Assembly (NCBI RefSeq): GCF_004319545.1
Contig: NZ_CP036313.1
Location: forward strand, 4,776,501 to 4,840,500
From: Desulfobacter hydrogenophilus
GTDB taxonomy: Bacteria; Desulfobacterota; Desulfobacteria; Desulfobacterales; Desulfobacteraceae
Length of the DNA stretch: 64,000 nt
Reading direction: 5' to 3'
Positions 7,325-14,518 of this stretch are shown here, in pieces. The notes under the pieces are model-generated. The model was not told where the DNA came from and searched no databases. It saw only the letters and a list, made by a program, of their open reading frames with translations. The position numbers were made by a program, and so were the translations under genes. Each line of letters opens with the position of its first letter. The stretch's first letter is position 1.

Positions 7325-7771
7325 ATGATTACTGAAGACGGCATTGTCACCCACGCTACACCTGAAACAGCCTGGATTAAAACCACCCGCTCGGCAGCCT
7401 GCGAAAGCTGTTCTTCAAAGGATTCCTGCGGCGTCAGCCATCACCCTTCTGAAGAAATGACGGTTATTTTATCAAACACGCTTGGTGTAATAAAAGGAGA
7501 CCGCGTGATTGTGGGCATTAATTCAGCACCCATGCTTTTTTTAAGTTTCCTCCTTTATGTATTCCCAATTATACTGCTCATCATTGGAGCACTGATCGGG
7601 GATGCCCTTGCCCCTGTTTTGGAAATGAGCAGATCCGCCCTTTCCATGGGTTTTGGTTTCTTACTATTTGCAGTCGCTTTTTTTATTATTAGAAAAAAAC
7701 AAGCAGGCATGTCAAAAAAAGACAAATATAAACCCTTTCTCGTTAGAAAAAAAAGCCCGCTCAGTTCATAG
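7325..7771 (+). CDS. rseC: RseC/MucC family membrane protein
   Basis: 148 residues. The N-terminal domain has four cysteines, CESCSSKDSCG plus neighbours, in the pattern of RseC/MucC proteins. Two membrane helices follow (about residues 72-98 and 103-123) and a basic tail. In enterobacteria RseC belongs to the SoxR-reducing system together with Rsx (Rnf-like) proteins. Its place immediately before the rnf operon fits an assembly or redox-coupling role with Rnf. The start codon has only a weak ribosome binding site. Confidence 0.82.
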   Translation: MITEDGIVTHATPETAWIKTTRSAACESCSSKDSCGVSHHPSEEMTVILSNTLGVIKGDRVIVGINSAPMLFLSFLLYVFPIILLIIGALIGDALAPVLEMSRSALSMGFGFLLFAVAFFIIRKKQAGMSKKDKYKPFLVRKKSPLSS

Positions 7772-7902: not shown

Positions 7903-8268
7903 ATGACATCACAACGCGACCTGAAAATAGCTGTATGGATCATGATCGTTCTTTTAGTCACAGGGATTGTATGTTACGCGTCCTTTTCCTCACCTGTTCC
8001 GGATAATCCAGTCAGACTGATGTTTCAGAACAAAGCAGGCAAAGTTTTATTCACTCATCTCATGCACACAGACGATTATTCTTTAGATTGTCTGGACTGC
8101 CATCACAACCTCGAAGATGGCGAAATCTACAACTGCAGCGAGTGCCATGAGCAAGAAGGTGATGAAGACATGCCGTCAAGGGCTGACGCATTCCACGCCC
8201 AGTGCAAGGGATGCCATGAAGATTATGGTGCGGGTCCGGTAGAATGTAATGCATGTCACGCACAATAA
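7903..8268 (+). CDS. Membrane-anchored tetrahaem cytochrome c (cytochrome c3/c7-like)
   Basis: 121 residues. An N-terminal hydrophobic helix (about residues 10-27) acts as uncleaved anchor or signal peptide. Four CXXCH haem motifs follow: CLDCH, CSECH, CKGCH and CNACH. Extra histidines such as FTHLMH can serve as distal ligands, as in class III cytochromes. It should face the periplasm. It precedes rnfC by 78 bp on the same strand. In Desulfovibrio and in Methanosarcina acetivorans a multihaem cytochrome is also encoded with Rnf, so an electron-transfer partner role is the natural inference. Confidence 0.88.
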   Translation: MTSQRDLKIAVWIMIVLLVTGIVCYASFSSPVPDNPVRLMFQNKAGKVLFTHLMHTDDYSLDCLDCHHNLEDGEIYNCSECHEQEGDEDMPSRADAFHAQCKGCHEDYGAGPVECNACHAQ

Positions 8269-8346
8269 TTTTTTCAGGATGACAGATATTGACCTGAATA
8301 AATTTAAGGCTTGGCTTAAGACTTTTACAACACTTAAGGACTAATT

Positions 8347-9618
8347 ATGATTAAACGATCTCTTTTCGCTCTATCCAAACCCAGGCTGACGTATGATTTG
8401 CTTGATACGTCTGTGCAATCCGCAGATGAGATTGCAGTACCTGGCAGTCTTACCCTTCTTTTGCCTGAAAAAATTGACAGCGCAAAAAAGGCTCTGATCG
8501 GCCCGGGAGATGCTGTCAAAAAAGGGCAGAAATTAAAACTCTACGATGACAGCATACCTTATGTTTTATCTCCTGTTGCAGGTACGATTAAGGGATTTGA
8601 TTCCTATTCCGATGACTTCGGCAACGCAGCGACCTATATATTGGTCAAGCCTGACCCATCGGCCAAAGGCGATGATCAATGGGCCCAGACAGATCTGGTA
8701 CAAACGCTTGAGTTTGCAGCCGATTATCTTGGACAAATCCCCGGGGCATTGCCCGTTTCAACCCTGACAAACCCAAACTATAATATCAGGACCATTGTCG
8801 TGACAGGTGCAGACACAGATATTTTGTGTGATACCTGTCAATTTGTCTGCACCGCATATGCAGGCCTGATGGTCGCCGGGGCCAAAATTCTTAAGGCGAT
8901 AACCCGGGCCGACCGAATCTGCATTACCGTGCCTGAAAATCTTTCAGCCCAGGTAGATCTTGATGGCTTTAATGTACTCAGAACGTCTGATACATACCCA
9001 TCTAATTTGCCCGCCATGGTAATGAAAGATCACTTGGGTAAGGAACTTTCACCCGGTGCGACCCCTGAAGATGAGGGTGTCTGTTTTATTCGCCCCGAGG
9101 CATTGGTTTCCCTTGCCCGGACTTACGAAACCGGACAACCGGTGTTCGATAAGATCATTACCCTGATTGACAAAGGCGGAAAAAGATGTCGGGTCAAGGC
9201 CACCATCGGTACACCGATCAGTAAAATATTTTCCTGTTTTAATGTTCAGATCAATGAACGGGACCGGATCATCATCGGCGGCCCCATGCGCGGCTATGCC
9301 ACCTATACGGTTCATCACCCCGTGGTTCCGGATATGGATACAATTATTGTTCAAGACAGGGATGTTGTTCCGGAACTTTCGGACAATGCCTGTGTTAATT
9401 GCGGTGAGTGCATCCGCGTCTGTCCGGCCAATATACCCGTGAACCTGCTGGTTCGGTATCTTGAAGCAAACCTTTATGAAGAAGCAGCAGACAGGTTCGA
9501 TCTGGAGTCCTGTATCGAGTGTGGACTTTGCGGCTATGTATGCAGGGCCAGGATTCCTTTATATCAGTATATCCGCTTGGGTAAACATGAACTGTTGACC
9601 CTTCGTGAAAATGCTTGA
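8347..9618 (+). CDS. rnfC: Rnf complex subunit RnfC, divergent
   Basis: 423 residues. The N-terminal barrel-sandwich region (LSPVAGTIKGFD), the SLBB-like middle part and two C-terminal [4Fe-4S] motifs (CVNCGECIRVCP and CIECGLCGYVC) identify RnfC. The start has AAGGA 6 bases upstream. In typical RnfC the middle domain binds FMN and NADH through a glycine-rich GGAGFPT loop and a GAECEP motif. Here the aligned stretches read IPGALPVST and GADTDILCD, so the nucleotide site appears lost. The following rnfD starts 18 bp downstream. RnfC here probably keeps its Fe-S wire but may not oxidise or reduce NAD directly. Confidence 0.88.
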   Translation: MIKRSLFALSKPRLTYDLLDTSVQSADEIAVPGSLTLLLPEKIDSAKKALIGPGDAVKKGQKLKLYDDSIPYVLSPVAGTIKGFDSYSDDFGNAATYILVKPDPSAKGDDQWAQTDLVQTLEFAADYLGQIPGALPVSTLTNPNYNIRTIVVTGADTDILCDTCQFVCTAYAGLMVAGAKILKAITRADRICITVPENLSAQVDLDGFNVLRTSDTYPSNLPAMVMKDHLGKELSPGATPEDEGVCFIRPEALVSLARTYETGQPVFDKIITLIDKGGKRCRVKATIGTPISKIFSCFNVQINERDRIIIGGPMRGYATYTVHHPVVPDMDTIIVQDRDVVPELSDNACVNCGECIRVCPANIPVNLLVRYLEANLYEEAADRFDLESCIECGLCGYVCRARIPLYQYIRLGKHELLTLRENA

Positions 9619-9635
9619 AAGGTGGGAGAAAGCCA

Positions 9636-10601
9636 ATGACAAACACTAAACTGATCGTTTCCCATGCCCCTTTCTGGCATAACGGAGACACCCTGTTTCA
9701 ACAGAATCTGAATTTCATTATCGCCCTTATACCGGCCGCACTTTTCGGTATTTTACATTTTGGTGCGCCTGCTATAGGGGTGTTGACCCTTGCGACGTCA
9801 TCAGCCATGCTCTGGGAAGTAATCATGTCGGTCCTCTCCAAGAAAAAAATGGCCATAGGCAATATGGAATCCGCAGTCATCGGCCTGCTGTTCGGTATGA
9901 TGGTTCCGGCCACAATGCCTTGGTGGGTTGTAATCACCGGCACATTTATAGCAGTAATCCTGGGAAAATTTGTATTTGGTGGTACCGGCGGTAATCCTTT
10001 CCACCCAACGCTGGTCGGTATTGCCATTCTCACGATGTCCTGGCCCGCTTTCTTAGACTTTGATACGGCTTATGTATCGTACCAGTTTGATTTTACTGCC
10101 CTTGCACCCTTGGTCGCGCTGAAATCCCAGGGCACATCCGCTCTGGCCTCATTTTCCAATTATGATCTACTCATGGGCAATGAAGTAGGCGGTATTGGTT
10201 CCACCTTCGGGCTTGGCATCATCATAGGCGGAATTTATTTGATGCTAACGGGCTATTCCCGCTGGGAAATTGTAGTGGCGTTCATTGCTGGGGTATTAAT
10301 TACCGCAACAATTTTCTTTGCGCTCCATCCCGACGCATATGCCCCCCCCCTGTTTCACCTGTTTGCAGGGTATACCCTTTTAGGTGCCTTCTTCCTGGCT
10401 GTGGAAAATTCATCTTCACCAGTTAATCGCATTCCTATGCTGATTTACGGATTTTTAGGTGGATTTATGGTTATCCTGGTCCGCAATATCGGTATTTATC
10501 CGGACGGAACGGTCCTGGCCATCTTGTTGATCAACCTTATCAATCCGCTGATTGATATAATAAGACCCAAAGCACTTGGAAAGGGGGTATCCAATGCGTG
10601 A
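9636..10601 (+). CDS. rnfD: Rnf complex subunit RnfD
   Basis: About 321 residues and highly hydrophobic, with roughly nine membrane helices. I chose the ATG at 9636 because GGGAGA lies 6 bases before it; the frame is open from 9615. The family motif around the covalently bound FMN is seen as GGIGSTFGLG (about residue 190). The stretch GGTGGNPFHPTLVG is typical of RnfD/NqrB. It forms part of the membrane ion-translocating core with RnfA, E and G. Its end overlaps rnfG by 8 bp. Confidence 0.92.
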   Translation: MTNTKLIVSHAPFWHNGDTLFQQNLNFIIALIPAALFGILHFGAPAIGVLTLATSSAMLWEVIMSVLSKKKMAIGNMESAVIGLLFGMMVPATMPWWVVITGTFIAVILGKFVFGGTGGNPFHPTLVGIAILTMSWPAFLDFDTAYVSYQFDFTALAPLVALKSQGTSALASFSNYDLLMGNEVGGIGSTFGLGIIIGGIYLMLTGYSRWEIVVAFIAGVLITATIFFALHPDAYAPPLFHLFAGYTLLGAFFLAVENSSSPVNRIPMLIYGFLGGFMVILVRNIGIYPDGTVLAILLINLINPLIDIIRPKALGKGVSNA

Positions 10602-11175
10602 GATGTTAAGTATGATAGTGGTGCTAACCGTTCTTACGGCAGTATCCGGCGGCCTCCTGGCAGCTGTTAAGGTGAAAACTGAGCCTCAAATTGAAGAACA
10701 GGTACTTAAATTTCAAAAAGCGCCTGCCATCGAAGCAATTTTTGCGGATGCCACCAATGACCCTATCCAAGAACGATTTAACGTCAAGGCTGAAGGCATT
10801 GAACTACAGGTTTTTCCAACCACTTTGACAGATGGGGTAAAAGCTGTTGCATTTGAAGCAAAAGGAACCGGATTCGGCGGTCCCATCGGGTTGATGATGG
10901 GTGTAAACCTTGACACCGATGAAATCATTGCCGTTCGGGTGACCACCCACTCTGAAACACCGGGTATCGGTTCCAGAGCCAAAGAGGACCTCTCTTTTGT
11001 CACCCAGTTTGCCGGCATGACCATGGCATCAAATTTTGGTATAAAAAACCAGGGCGGCGACATTGATGCCATGTCCGGGGCTACGGTGACATCCGTTGGT
11101 GTCAGCCAGGCCGCAGTGGCAGCCCAGGATTTATATAAGAAACTGAAACCTGAAATTGTTAAACATATGAATTAA
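10594..11175 (+). CDS. rnfG: Rnf complex subunit RnfG (FMN-binding)
   Basis: About 193 residues. The ATG at 10594 is preferred over a TTG at 10576; it overlaps the rnfD stop by 8 bp, which suggests coupling. One N-terminal membrane anchor is followed by an FMN-binding domain exposed to the periplasm. The flavinylation motif SGATVTS (about residue 161) contains the Thr that would carry FMN through a phosphodiester bond. No apbE flavin transferase gene lies in this window, so it must be elsewhere. Confidence 0.92.
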   Translation: MREMLSMIVVLTVLTAVSGGLLAAVKVKTEPQIEEQVLKFQKAPAIEAIFADATNDPIQERFNVKAEGIELQVFPTTLTDGVKAVAFEAKGTGFGGPIGLMMGVNLDTDEIIAVRVTTHSETPGIGSRAKEDLSFVTQFAGMTMASNFGIKNQGGDIDAMSGATVTSVGVSQAAVAAQDLYKKLKPEIVKHMN

Positions 11176-11199
11176 TAAGGTCGTTCAGGAGAGATAATT

Positions 11200-11808
11200 A
11201 TGGCACAATCCCTGGTAAAAGAATTCACAAAAGGACTTTGGGTTGAGATACCTCTATTCCGCCTTGTCCTTGGGCTATGCCCCGCCCTTGCCGTGACCAA
11301 AACGTGTGAGAACGGCATCGGTATGGGAGTGGCGACTACCTTTGTCCTTTTGTTCTCAAACATTTTAGTCTCCATGCTTAGAAATATAATCCCCACCAAG
11401 GTCAGAATTGCCTGCTACATCGTTATTATTGCCACCTTTGTAACCATCGTGGAATTCATGATGCAGGCATATATGTATGAACTGTTCCTGAAACTGGGTA
11501 TTTTCATTCCTCTAATCGTTGTAAACTGTATCGTACTTGGCCGGGCCGAGGCATTTGCCGGAAAAAATACCGTGCTGCCGTCTGCTGCCGACGGTCTTGG
11601 CATGGGTATTGGGTTTACCTTAGCACTGTCCTCCCTTGGGGCGGTACGCGAGCTTATCGGTGCAGGCACCCTGACCGTGTGGGGCGGTACCCCGCTGTTT
11701 ACAATCGGGCATGGCTATATTCCCTTTCAATTCATGGTTGAAGCTCCGGGCGCATTTATCGGCCTGGGCCTGATGCTCTGCCTGATGAACCTCATCGGAC
11801 AAAAATAA
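11200..11808 (+). CDS. rnfE: Rnf complex subunit RnfE
   Basis: 202 residues, six predicted membrane helices, starting with a good GGAGAG ribosome binding site. The motif GLCPALAVTKT near residue 25 and VNCIVLGRAEAF near residue 110 are typical of RnfE/NqrD; the cysteines in them belong to the membrane iron site that RnfA and RnfE share. It lies between rnfG and rnfA in the standard order C-D-G-E-A-B. Confidence 0.94.
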   Translation: MAQSLVKEFTKGLWVEIPLFRLVLGLCPALAVTKTCENGIGMGVATTFVLLFSNILVSMLRNIIPTKVRIACYIVIIATFVTIVEFMMQAYMYELFLKLGIFIPLIVVNCIVLGRAEAFAGKNTVLPSAADGLGMGIGFTLALSSLGAVRELIGAGTLTVWGGTPLFTIGHGYIPFQFMVEAPGAFIGLGLMLCLMNLIGQK

Positions 11809-11826
11809 GGTAAGGAGATTTATAAC

Positions 11827-12402
11827 ATGGGTGATTTATTTGTTCTGGCAATTAGCTGCATTTTCATCAACAATATTCTCCTTGCTCAATTCTTAGGCAA
11901 CTGTCCCTTTTTGGGTACCTCCAAAAAGATGGAAACTGCTGTGGGCATGGGCATGGCGGTTGTATTTGTTCTGGTCATGGCAGGCATGATAACCTGGATC
12001 GTAGACACGTATCTACTTAAAGCGCTGGATGTTGAATTTCTACGGACTGTGTCCTTTATTTTGGTTATAGCCTCTCTGGTTCAATTCGTGGAAATGTTTT
12101 TAAAAAAGAGTATCCCGGGGCTGTATGCAGGCTTGGGCATATTTCTTCCACTGATTACAACTAACTGCGCGGTGATGGGCGTGTGTCTGATCAACATCAA
12201 GGACGAATACAGCTTTATTGAAGCCTTGGTGTCCTCGTTTTCCTATGCCGTGGGTTTTGGTCTTGCCCTGGTTCTGTTTGCAGGCGTCAGGGAACGGGTC
12301 ATCCTCGCCAGGGTGCCCAAACCTTTACAGGATACCTCCATTGGTCTTATGACCGCCGGCATGATCGCATTGATCTTTACCGTCTTCAGGGGCATGGTTT
12401 AG
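11827..12402 (+). CDS. rnfA: Rnf complex subunit RnfA
   Basis: 191 residues with six membrane helices, preceded by AAGGAG. The motifs NNILLAQFLGNCPFLG and TTNCAVMGVCL are hallmarks of RnfA/NqrE; their cysteines ligate the intramembrane Fe-S cluster formed with RnfE. It follows rnfE by 18 bp and is followed by rnfB 31 bp later. Confidence 0.94.
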   Translation: MGDLFVLAISCIFINNILLAQFLGNCPFLGTSKKMETAVGMGMAVVFVLVMAGMITWIVDTYLLKALDVEFLRTVSFILVIASLVQFVEMFLKKSIPGLYAGLGIFLPLITTNCAVMGVCLINIKDEYSFIEALVSSFSYAVGFGLALVLFAGVRERVILARVPKPLQDTSIGLMTAGMIALIFTVFRGMV

Positions 12403-12433
12403 TTTAACACAAAAAATAATATAAGGTGATTGT

Positions 12434-14518
12434 ATGATTCCAGCTATACTGCTAATGCTGGGCATTGGCGCAACATGCGGCATCGTGCTCAGTCTTTCCT
12501 CCAAAATCTTTTATGTGTATGAAGACCCCAGAATTGCACAGGTAGAAAACAATCTTGCAGGCGCCAACTGCGGTGGCTGTGGATATGCGGGTTGTTCTGC
12601 AGCCGCAGAAGCCGTTGTGTTAGGCAAGGAACCCCCAACCGTTTGCGTTATCAATTCCAAAGAAGGGGTTGAAGCTGTTTCTCGTATCATGGGTGTGGAT
12701 GCGGGTGCTGCTGAAGCTCCGTTATCCTACAACATGTGCGAGGGCGGCAACCGGGCTGCTAACAAGTACCATTATATGGGTGTGTCATCATGCAAAGCCA
12801 TGGCCGCTGTCTTTGGCGGACACAGGGTTTGTACAGTTGGTTGCATTGGTCTTGGGGACTGTATCAAGGCATGCCAGTTCAGTGCGCTTCATATGGGACC
12901 GAATGGTTATCCCGTGGTTGATGACAATAAATGCGTTGGCTGTGGCGCCTGCCAGAAAGCCTGCCCCAAAGATATTATTCAAGTCAAGACCCTGAGCGAA
13001 AAACTAATGGAATTCAACCAGGAGCAAGGTGCTTTGGCACCGTGTTCCCAGACTTGTCCTGCTGAAATCAATATTCCAAAATATATCAGTGAAATAAAAG
13101 CCGGTAAATATGACGAAGCGGTTCAGACCATACGCATGAGAAACCCCCTTCTCCTTTCCTGCGGAAGGGTATGTCCTCATCCTTGTGAAGATATGTGCAG
13201 AAGAGGTATTGAGGATGAACCGGTTTCCATTAACCAGCTCAAACGCTTTGTTGCTGACTATGAAATGAATTCTGGTTCCCGGATCCCGATTACCTGTGCC
13301 CCTGATACCGGTAAAAAAGTGGCTGTAATTGGCGGCGGACCTGCCGGACTTTCCTGTGCATATTTCTTAAGACGGATCGGTCATCAAGTCGATATTTTTG
13401 ACGCTATGCCAAAACTTGGCGGTATTATTAGATACGGCATCCCAGAGTACAGACTTCCTAAAAAGGTTCTGGATTGGGAAATCCAGGGAATTCTCGATTT
13501 AGGAATAAATGCCTTTACCCAAGTTAAATTCGGATCAGACTTTGGACTAAGCTCTTTGGTAGCCACGGGATACCACGCCGTTTTCATGGGAATTGGTGCC
13601 TGGAAAGATTATGCCCTTGGCATTGAAGGGGAAGACCTTAACGGATGCTATAAGGGAATTGACTGGCTTTCGAAATTTGCTAGTGGTCAGGAAATGAAAT
13701 TAGGGAAAAGCGCTGCTATCGTCGGTGGTGGAAACAGTGCCATTGACTGCGTCAGGACACTGATGCGGCTGGGTCTTGAAAAAGTGTACATTGTTTACAG
13801 AAGAACCCGGAATGAAATGCCTGCCAATGCAGTGGAAATTGTTGCAGCAGAAGAGGAAGGCATTGATTTTGTATTCCTTGCAGCCCCCACACGGGTCATT
13901 GGAGATGATGAGGGCAAAGTTAAAGGCCTTGAATACCTGCAGATGGAACTAGGTGAACCGGATGCATCCGGTAGAAGGCGGCCTATACCGATTGAAGGGT
14001 CTGAAACGGTACTGGATGTTGATATGGTCATCTCTGCCATTAGTCAGGCACCGGACCCCTCTTTTAAGGACAATGATTCAACTCCGAGAATGAAAGATCT
14101 GGAGATGACCCGTTGGAATACCATTGACAACAATCCTGAAACCCTGCAATCTTCAATCCCATATATTTTCACTGGGGGGGATTCTGCAACCGGGCCTTCC
14201 CTTGTTGTTACTGCCATTGGCGGCGGAAGGCGTGCAGCCCGCTCCATTGACCTGTTCCTGAAAGGAAAACCGGTTGAACCGGTCGAAAATTCCTTACAAG
14301 GAAAAAGAATCCCTGAATCTATTTTCAAAAAAGTTGACGGCATAACGCCCAGCAAACGGGCTAAAATGCCGGAAATACCGGTTAGCCAGAGGCTGGATTC
14401 AATGATTGAGGTCGATCTGGTTCTGCCCGAAGACCAGGCTCTTGCCGAGGCCGATCGCTGTCTGAACTGTTGCAGGATCTGCTACAATCCTGATACAGAA
14501 TTTCCCATTGCCAAATAA
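12434..14518 (+). CDS. rnfB: RnfB fused to a GltD-like FAD/NAD(P) oxidoreductase domain
   Basis: 694 residues, more than twice a plain RnfB. Residues 1-25 are a membrane anchor. Next comes the RnfB Fe-S domain (NCGGCGYAGC, about residue 45) and two [4Fe-4S] sites, CTVGCIGLGDCIKAC and CVGCGACQKACP (to about 185). From about residue 200 it reads as the beta subunit of glutamate synthase: CSQTCPAEINIP and CGRVCPHPCEDMC for Fe-S clusters, VAVIGGGPAGLSC for FAD (about 298) and AAIVGGGNSAIDC for NAD(P) (about 433). It ends in a further cysteine motif (CLNCCRIC). The single continuous frame argues against an error. Coupled with the degenerate RnfC, it may be the pyridine-nucleotide or flavin entry point of this complex. 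Confidence 0.9.
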   Translation: MIPAILLMLGIGATCGIVLSLSSKIFYVYEDPRIAQVENNLAGANCGGCGYAGCSAAAEAVVLGKEPPTVCVINSKEGVEAVSRIMGVDAGAAEAPLSYNMCEGGNRAANKYHYMGVSSCKAMAAVFGGHRVCTVGCIGLGDCIKACQFSALHMGPNGYPVVDDNKCVGCGACQKACPKDIIQVKTLSEKLMEFNQEQGALAPCSQTCPAEINIPKYISEIKAGKYDEAVQTIRMRNPLLLSCGRVCPHPCEDMCRRGIEDEPVSINQLKRFVADYEMNSGSRIPITCAPDTGKKVAVIGGGPAGLSCAYFLRRIGHQVDIFDAMPKLGGIIRYGIPEYRLPKKVLDWEIQGILDLGINAFTQVKFGSDFGLSSLVATGYHAVFMGIGAWKDYALGIEGEDLNGCYKGIDWLSKFASGQEMKLGKSAAIVGGGNSAIDCVRTLMRLGLEKVYIVYRRTRNEMPANAVEIVAAEEEGIDFVFLAAPTRVIGDDEGKVKGLEYLQMELGEPDASGRRRPIPIEGSETVLDVDMVISAISQAPDPSFKDNDSTPRMKDLEMTRWNTIDNNPETLQSSIPYIFTGGDSATGPSLVVTAIGGGRRAARSIDLFLKGKPVEPVENSLQGKRIPESIFKKVDGITPSKRAKMPEIPVSQRLDSMIEVDLVLPEDQALAEADRCLNCCRICYNPDTEFPIAK

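What the first reader, a model, noticed from the sequence alone, without database searches (positions are those of the whole stretch)
7903..14518. Rnf variant: NADH site lost from RnfC, flavin/NAD(P) module fused to RnfB, tetrahaem cytochrome upstream
Seen: RnfC lacks the GGAGFPT loop and the GAECEP motif (reads IPGALPVST and GADTDILCD) while its Fe-S motifs are intact. RnfB carries ~490 extra residues with FAD and NAD(P) Rossmann motifs and Fe-S cysteines of the GltD/NfnB type. A tetrahaem cytochrome gene opens the operon. Known: in usual Rnf, RnfC binds FMN and exchanges electrons with NAD, and RnfB takes electrons from ferredoxin; in Methanosarcina, Rnf works with a multihaem cytochrome instead of NAD. 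Inference: nucleotide chemistry has moved from RnfC to RnfB, perhaps with a bifurcating or NADP-linked role, and the cytochrome may be an alternative electron port.
Basis: partly seen in the sequence, partly recalled or inferred. Interest (0 to 1): 0.88.

Follow-up and report, generated by a model that had tools for sequence, protein, structure and literature searches.

The report
Cytochrome-linked Rnf with missing flavin sites
A bacterial membrane redox pump (Rnf) in this Desulfobacter-like genome has lost the flavin-binding residues of its normal exit route to NADH, kept its periplasmic flavin site, and carries an NADP(H)-type module and a cytochrome gene; the variant is known in print, but I found no report of the loss in its RnfD subunit.

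Summary
At 7903-14518 lie a tetrahaem cytochrome gene and rnfCDGEAB. RnfC keeps its fold and both [4Fe-4S] motifs but lacks the FMN/NADH loops. RnfB (694 aa) carries a FAD/NADP(H) module related to NfnA/NfnB/GltD.

This type is already described: PMC5109826 (passages) reports a ~700 aa RnfB with NAD-binding sites, an RnfC without NADH domains, and a cytochrome in the cluster.

What I add is RnfD. Its covalent-FMN threonine (Thr153 of C. tetanomorphum RnfD) and the FMN-pocket Arg130 and Glu185 are all replaced in the window, while RnfG keeps its FMN threonine. Of 146 operons, 73 of 73 with an intact RnfC loop keep all three RnfD residues. The 59 operons of the window's class lost the RnfC loop: 51 lack all three RnfD residues, 4 keep only Glu, 4 only a Thr. 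On an RnfA+RnfE tree the class needs one change.

Best reading: a linearised Rnf, cytoplasmic NADPH/ferredoxin <-> RnfB <-> RnfA/E <-> RnfG <-> periplasmic cytochrome. That nucleotide chemistry simply "moved" is only partly right: small-RnfB operons share the loss, and 13 of 33 fused RnfBs have an eroded NADP motif. The role of RnfC is open.

The parts
7325..7771 (+).
   Evidence: PF04246 E=6.7e-31; RseC homologue in the stretch around 27 of 59 class operons against 1 of 73 intact ones, either strand, window counted
7903..8268 (+). tetrahaem c3-type cytochrome with an N-terminal hydrophobic segment (periplasmic and membrane-anchored by inference)
   Evidence: PF02085 E=1.5e-13; 4 CxxCH; homologue upstream of 42 of 59 class operons, window counted, and 0 of 73 intact ones
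8347..9618 (+). RnfC without FMN/NADH loops, two 4Fe-4S motifs kept
   Evidence: model fold matches solved RnfC, TM 0.77-0.81
9636..10601 (+). RnfD with the FMN pocket lost: Thr153->Ala, Arg130->Ile, Glu185->Ser, Ser284->Val (C. tetanomorphum numbering); Asp248->Glu
10594..11175 (+). RnfG, covalent-FMN motif SGATVTS kept
   Evidence: PF04205 and NF045876
11200..11808 (+). RnfE; two conserved cysteines kept (their role as cluster ligands is recalled)
11827..12402 (+). RnfA; two conserved cysteines kept (their role as cluster ligands is recalled)
12434..14518 (+). RnfB (residues about 1-190) fused to an NfnB/GltD-like FAD/NADP(H) Fe-S module (about 198-684)

Best explanation
It is a linearised Rnf. 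Electrons pass between cytoplasmic NADPH (at the FAD/NADP module of RnfB) and/or ferredoxin (at the RnfB Fe-S domains), then the RnfA/E iron-sulfur site, then the covalent FMN of RnfG in the periplasm, and leave or enter there through the tetrahaem cytochrome. The usual second half, RnfD-FMN to riboflavin to RnfC to NAD, is broken because RnfD and RnfC have both lost their FMN sites. Shown from sequence: the losses and the retained sites. Inferred: that the cytochrome is the RnfG partner, that NADPH is the nucleotide, that ion pumping is kept, and the direction. RnfC, whose two clusters are kept, probably serves as scaffold or Fe-S docking port beside RnfB; its partner is unknown.
For: RnfD Thr153, Arg130 and Glu185 are present in 73 of 73 operons with intact RnfC loop. 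Of 59 class members 51 lack all three (in four of these the Thr column is a gap: L152, L159, L215, L216), 4 keep only the Glu, 4 keep only a Thr in another context. RnfG FMN Thr is kept in 57 of 59: one row has no letters there, one reads SGAS. The RnfA/E cysteines are kept wherever the column is filled. The RnfB N-terminal cluster cysteines are kept in 33 of 33 fused RnfBs aligned, of 35 held. A multihaem cytochrome (3 or more CxxCH, same strand) is nearby in 43 of 59 and in 0 of 73 intact operons. The class needs one change on an RnfA+RnfE tree, SH-aLRT 99. In the C. tetanomorphum structure the path is RnfB, RnfAE, RnfG-FMN, RnfD-FMN, riboflavin, RnfC clusters, RnfC-FMN, with RnfG-FMN under 5 A from RnfD-FMN (PMC9588780, passages); without RnfD-FMN that step has no obvious acceptor. 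The NADP-type motif of the module is intact here, and a canonical Rnf and an NQR in the same genome could serve NADH. In M. [quoted passage not shown] In D. alaskensis, with a decahaem-linked Rnf, the rnfD mutant was milder than the rnfA mutant on H2 and formate (PMC4841214, passages); weak, since the insertions differ.
Against: Both RnfC cluster motifs are kept in 59 of 59 class members, which a mere scaffold would not need. The M. acetivorans authors route electrons outward through RnfC and RnfD to RnfG, and name a potential flavin motif in RnfD (PMC4023990). 16 of 59 have no multihaem cytochrome nearby, 11 of them with fused RnfB. In D. multivorans the cytochrome of the cluster was detected only in lactate-adapted cells, though the authors call it hard to detect (PMC5109826). 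The class is one clade, so the matching losses count as one event, not 59. RnfD Asp248 is kept as D (21) or E (47) in 68 rows called Thr-less (the 59 plus 9 named-locus rows, one of which, L021, is a misfiled canonical row), so riboflavin may remain. No biochemistry was seen for the fused type.
Confidence: 0.6

Rival explanations
1. RnfC is still an electron exit, entry or relay. Either RnfG flavin docks directly into the emptied RnfD pocket and passes the electron to riboflavin and the RnfC clusters, where a soluble protein (ferredoxin, Hdr- or DsrC-type partner) replaces NAD; or, as drawn for M. acetivorans, electrons run from RnfB through RnfC and RnfD out to RnfG.
For: Both RnfC cluster motifs kept 59 of 59; RnfD Asp/Glu248 kept; the fold of RnfC is kept. 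For the two-subunit NQR/RNF-like complexes, which also lack the RnfD flavinylation site, such sampling by the extracytosolic flavin was proposed (PMC11334425, passages). PMC5109826 calls for an unknown RnfC partner. M. acetivorans model: PMC4023990, passages.
Against: Arg130 and Glu185 of the FMN pocket are gone as well as Thr153 in 51 of 59 and Ser284 is replaced in the window, so the pocket is remodelled, not just empty. By eye and without a domain search, no shared extra cytoplasmic partner gene stood out in the gene lists of 12 class operons without a same-strand RnfB and of the 16 without a nearby cytochrome, apart from NfnAB-like genes in two.
Confidence: 0.25
2. RnfB's module is an electron-bifurcating or confurcating unit: NADPH oxidation is split between ferredoxin/RnfB clusters and another carrier, as in Nfn. 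(Compatible with the best explanation.)
For: Closest solved relatives are bifurcating NfnABC, StnABC and NfnAB subunits. In G036 and G389 genes like NfnA and NfnB stand directly behind rnfA (by eye; the NfnB-like ones also match the module). FAD GxGxxG and eight module cysteines are invariant in 33 of 33 aligned.
Against: No NfnA-like gene (second flavin, NAD site) was seen in the window's operon. Non-bifurcating relatives (GltD, dihydropyrimidine dehydrogenase) share the fold. 13 of 33 fused RnfBs have lost the NADP motif and the GD motif near 582-583.
Confidence: 0.25
3. The complex runs mainly inward: periplasmic cytochrome (from H2 or formate) to RnfG, RnfA/E, RnfB, ferredoxin/NADP+, spending the ion gradient. 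(Same wiring as the best explanation, other direction.)
For: D. alaskensis rnf mutants (decahaem-rnfCDGEABF arrangement) grow poorly or not at all on H2, formate or ethanol but like the parent on lactate-sulfate (PMC4841214, passages); four surveyed decahaem operons (family code f50) belong to the same class.
Against: The same paper concludes that Rnf builds the proton gradient. That organism's own RnfB and RnfD were not examined here.
Confidence: 0.3
4. RnfC and RnfD are decaying remnants of a redundant second Rnf and the operon is losing function.
For: A canonical Rnf exists in the same genome.
Against: The Fe-S motifs of RnfC, RnfG FMN Thr, RnfA/E cysteines and RnfB cysteines are kept across the class; five of six Rnf2 subunits were detected in D. 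multivorans under all tested substrates and the sixth under six (PMC5109826).
Confidence: 0.03

Closest known systems
Desulfobacula toluolica Tol2-type Rnf (Rnf2 of Desulfococcus multivorans; PMC5109826, passages read)
   Same: RnfB of ~700 aa with NAD-binding sites, RnfC lacking NADH-oxidoreductase and SLBB domains; in D. multivorans a small acidic cytochrome in the cluster and a canonical second Rnf in the genome; a different mode of action was already suggested there
   Different: The passages read say nothing of RnfD cofactors; the loss of its FMN site, its single origin and the spread are added here
Canonical ferredoxin:NAD Rnf (C. tetanomorphum, A. woodii, A. vinelandii structures)
   Same: Six homologous subunits, RnfG FMN motif, RnfA/E cysteines, RnfB clusters, fold of RnfC
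   Different: RnfC FMN/NADH loops and the RnfD FMN pocket lost; RnfB fused; cytochrome added
Rnf with multihaem cytochrome of Methanosarcina acetivorans (PMC4023990, passages read)
   Same: Cytochrome gene cotranscribed with rnf; no NAD(P) use; RnfG proposed to give electrons to the cytochrome
   Different: No RnfB fusion mentioned in the passages; the authors route electrons through RnfC and RnfD; the archaeal sequences were not compared here
Decahaem (dhcA)-rnfCDGEABF of Desulfovibrio (PMC4841214, PMC4287179, passages read)
   Same: Cytochrome-first operon; four surveyed operons of this layout have the same RnfC and RnfD losses
   Different: Small RnfB of about 300 aa in those four
NfnA/NfnB, NfnABC, StnC, GltD flavoprotein family
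   Same: The C-terminal 490 residues of RnfB: FAD and NADP motifs, Fe-S cysteines
   Different: Joined to RnfB in one protein; no NfnA-type partner seen in the window's operon
Two-subunit NQR/RNF-like complexes (PMC8238504, PMC11334425, passages read)
   Same: RnfD-like part lacks the flavinylation site; linear electron export proposed
   Different: Those keep only RnfD-like and RnfG-like parts; here all six Rnf subunits remain

Membership tests
Rnf complex (six subunits) | rnfCDGEAB genes in one cluster | tested here: met
Rnf complex (six subunits) | covalent FMN Thr in RnfG | tested here: met
   SGATVTS
Rnf complex (six subunits) | covalent FMN Thr in RnfD | tested here: not met
   Ala at Thr153
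Rnf complex (six subunits) | RnfC FMN/NADH site | tested here: not met
Rnf complex (six subunits) | ferredoxin:NAD oxidoreductase activity | not testable with these tools
   needs biochemistry; predicted absent
D. toluolica Tol2-type Rnf | RnfB about 700 aa with NAD-binding sites | tested here: met
   694 aa
D. toluolica Tol2-type Rnf | RnfC without NADH-oxidoreductase domain, cytochrome in the cluster | tested here: met
   definition
Methanosarcina-type Rnf with cytochrome | cytochrome gene in the rnf cluster | tested here: met
Methanosarcina-type Rnf with cytochrome | sequence kinship of cytochrome, RnfC and RnfD with the archaeal ones | not tested
NfnB/GltD family (RnfB C-terminal module) | FAD and NADP(H) motifs, Fe-S cysteines | tested here: met
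Electron-bifurcating Nfn | NfnA partner with second flavin and NAD site | tested here: not met
   no such gene seen among the ORFs of the window's operon; NfnA-like genes behind rnfA in two relatives (by eye)
Na+-NQR | NqrF-type NADH subunit in the cluster | tested here: not met
   absent at 7903-14518; a separate NQR-like cluster with a NqrF-like gene (by sequence, no domain search) is in L011

The most novel reading that the evidence does not exclude
A whole clade of Rnf complexes has been cut, in one event, from a cytoplasm-to-cytoplasm loop into a transmembrane conductor between cytoplasmic NADPH/ferredoxin and periplasmic cytochromes, with an RnfD that no longer carries FMN. If it still pumps ions, the RnfD FMN is not needed for coupling, and the pump must lie in RnfA/E with RnfG.
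Probability: 0.45. Interest if true: 0.75.

Novelty: new member of a known kind. Interest (0 to 1): 0.55.

Why it matters
The ion path of Rnf and Nqr is disputed: one model puts pumping at RnfD with its flavin, another at RnfA/E (review PMC12174285, passages). A natural Rnf whose RnfD has lost its FMN site, while the RnfA/E and RnfG sites stay, makes that question directly testable. It also offers a reason why some sulfate reducers carry two Rnf complexes, one for NADH and one tied to the periplasmic cytochrome pool. It may further explain a printed reading: PMC11434368 (passages) reports loss of rnfB and a FAD-dependent oxidoreductase gene instead in many Desulfovibrionaceae; by the pattern seen here that gene could be a fused RnfB (inference; those genomes were not checked by name).

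Tried and rejected
Rejected: decay of a redundant copy, because retained sites are conserved across the class. Rejected: frameshift or misassembly of RnfB, because the fusion is an open frame and recurs in many genomes. Rejected as sole explanation: transfer of NADH chemistry to RnfB, because small-RnfB members share the loss.

Led nowhere: the Pereira 2011 comparative paper (recalled) was not held under the two ids tried. The original D. toluolica papers were not seen; they are known here only through PMC5109826. NADP dependence of isocitrate dehydrogenase: only sub-cut-off matches to TIGR00183, so no physiological argument was drawn from it. Co-occurrence outside the window's phylum could not be tested. 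RnfB model confidence is only moderate (pLDDT 76), so no cluster distances were read from it.

Limits of the survey: 395 genomes of one phylum were searched; 146 had an RnfD-family match at E <= 1e-15. 160 loci from 137 genomes were fetched; matches cut off from the two listings were not fetched. 16 of the 160 had no RnfC-like protein of over 250 aa called and were left out; the 146 operons compared are 144 fetched plus the window plus the genome's own canonical operon. The RnfA+RnfE tree has 136 of the 146 rows, the RnfB tree 119. Of 35 fused RnfBs held (29 of the survey, 6 of named loci) 33 were aligned; L156 and L167 were left out. Named loci L012-L031 are not in the 146. Many stretches end at contig ends, so a missing RnfB or cytochrome can be a cut. 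The display was cut; all rows reappear.


Full report
What is there. The window lies in a 5.16-Mb genome. Its closest named RnfC relatives are Desulfobacter (up to 92% identity). At 7903-14518, on the + strand, stand a tetrahaem c3-type cytochrome, rnfC, rnfD, rnfG, rnfE, rnfA and rnfB, with gaps of at most 78 bp. An RseC/MucC-like gene ends 131 bp upstream. A canonical Rnf with intact RnfC and RnfD motifs and a 272-aa RnfB lies about 115 kb away, and a Na+-NQR-like cluster elsewhere. The only Complex1_51K (NADH/FMN) match in the genome at E <= 0.001 is that of the canonical RnfC.

RnfC. The FMN-binding glycine loop and the ECEP motif are gone, while both 4Fe-4S motifs remain. The predicted structure (pLDDT 89.9) best matches RnfC of A. 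vinelandii, A. woodii and C. tetanomorphum, with TM 0.77-0.81 normalised to the model. The fold is kept and the nucleotide site is not. A profile search found 1441 related proteins at E <= 1e-60 among the 7995 candidates scored; how many lack the site was not counted.

RnfB. The N-terminal 190 residues are RnfB with its cluster cysteines. Residues about 198-684 are an NfnB/GltD-like module whose closest solved relatives are subunits of the bifurcating NfnABC and StnABC and of NfnAB. FAD and NADP(H) motifs are intact in the window. That YRR binds the NADP phosphate is recalled, not tested.

RnfD, the new point. Against the solved C. tetanomorphum RnfD, the window has Ala at Thr153 (the covalent FMN site), Ile at Arg130, Ser at Glu185 and Val at Ser284; Asp248 is Glu. 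The roles of these residues and the electron path are from PMC9588780 (passages). RnfG keeps its SGAT motif, and RnfA/E keep their conserved cysteines.

Survey. In 395 genomes of the phylum, 146 had an RnfD-family match. 160 loci were fetched and 146 RnfC-bearing operons compared, window and own canonical operon included. Intact RnfC loop: 73 operons. All 73 have RnfD Thr, Arg and Glu; 0 have a nearby multihaem cytochrome; 67 have a small RnfB, 6 none in the stretch, 0 a fused one. The class of the window: 59 operons. All 59 lost the RnfC loop and all 59 kept both Fe-S motifs (at least four Cys each). 51 lack all three RnfD residues (four of them with a gap at the Thr column), 4 keep only the Glu (L098, L099, L102, L103) and 4 keep only a Thr in another context (L154, L156, L157, L167). 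RnfG Thr is kept in 57 of 59 (one row without letters there, one SGAS). 43 of 59 have a multihaem cytochrome nearby on the same strand. RnfB in the locus is fused in 29, small in 15 (one of them cut by its contig end), and absent or truncated in 15. A third set of 14 lacks the RnfC loop but keeps RnfD Thr: one truncated RnfC (L105), four NqrA/RnfC-like proteins (one, L191, with an 8-haem cytochrome nearby), and nine of a separate subtype with small or no RnfB found.

History. On a tree of RnfA+RnfE, which carry none of the traits, the 54 class members present need one change, SH-aLRT 99. The association is therefore one ancient event kept since, not 59 independent ones. On an RnfB N-terminal tree the 29 fused RnfBs form one clade with one truncated row (support 100), next to small-RnfB members of the class (support 95), while the RnfBs of the four decahaem operons fall elsewhere. 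So the cofactor losses are wider than the fusion. In 13 of 33 aligned fused RnfBs the YRR motif is eroded, the second Rossmann motif partly so, and the GD motif near residues 582-583 is changed too, while the first FAD glycines and eight module cysteines are invariant; whether those 13 still bind FAD is open. Of 18 genomes searched for fused RnfB, 8 carry a full-length one, 57-65% identical to the window's, away from the operon stretch fetched (in at least two, G252 and G275, that stretch ends at a contig end); 2 have it in the operon (G058, G103); 2 have only a 39-40% identical one elsewhere (G132, G254); 2 have a small RnfB (G370, G072); and in 4 no full-length one was listed (G210, G393, G001, G041).

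Mechanism. In known Rnf the electron returns to the cytoplasm through RnfD-FMN, riboflavin, the RnfC clusters and RnfC-FMN. Here two stations of that return path are missing and the outward half is kept, with a cytochrome gene at the head of the operon. The best reading is electron exchange between cytoplasmic NADPH/ferredoxin and periplasmic cytochrome through RnfB, RnfA/E and RnfG. Direction, ion coupling, and the job of the two RnfC clusters are not settled. For M. acetivorans another outward route, through RnfC and RnfD to RnfG, has been drawn (PMC4023990, passages). D. alaskensis work on a decahaem-linked Rnf reports both a gradient-building role and a need for Rnf on H2 or formate (PMC4841214, passages).

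Prior knowledge. PMC5109826 (passages) already describes the large RnfB, the RnfC without NADH domains, the cytochrome and a suggested different mode of action. PMC2702500 (passages) reports two rnf and one nqr system in D. autotrophicum. PMC11434368 (passages) reports a FAD-dependent oxidoreductase gene in place of rnfB in Desulfovibrionaceae. I found no statement on RnfD FMN loss in this class in the passages read or in the listings of searches. The library lacks most subscription journals, and the D. toluolica papers were not found, so an earlier report cannot be excluded.

Noticed in passing
L085 (G389) and L088 (G036), behind rnfA: Genes like NfnA (279 aa as read in L085) and NfnB (467 aa), named by eye, stand where rnfB is expected; a fused RnfB lies elsewhere in both genomes.
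   Followed up: partly
L068, L072, L073, L074, L076, L078, L081, L084, L091, L108, L112, L115, L116: Fused RnfB whose NADP motif and GD motif are eroded although the first FAD glycines and eight module cysteines are kept: perhaps an Fe-S/flavin module without nucleotide.
   Followed up: partly
L160, L166, L174, L183, L187, L189, L190, L200, L202: Another Rnf subtype: the RnfC glycine loop is missing but a TEFEP-like motif (in most) and RnfD Thr are kept, RnfB small or not found, no cytochrome nearby.
   Followed up: no
12 canonical operons of the survey (loci not listed by the call): RnfE has Ala in place of the second conserved cysteine in 12 of 72 canonical rows.
   Followed up: no
L011 5791-11630 (own genome): NQR-like cluster whose NqrA/RnfC-like subunit carries two RnfC-type 4Fe-4S motifs.
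   Followed up: partly
window 7325-7771: RseC-like gene upstream; RseC homologues lie in the stretches of 27 of 59 class operons but 1 of 73 intact ones. The title of PMC9124969 (listing only) calls rseC indispensable for autotrophy in C. ljungdahlii.
   Followed up: partly
G000:C1:1566886-1567734: Single ApbE (flavin transferase) match of the genome, not next to the operon; in L064 an ApbE-like gene (by eye) follows rnfA directly.
   Followed up: partly
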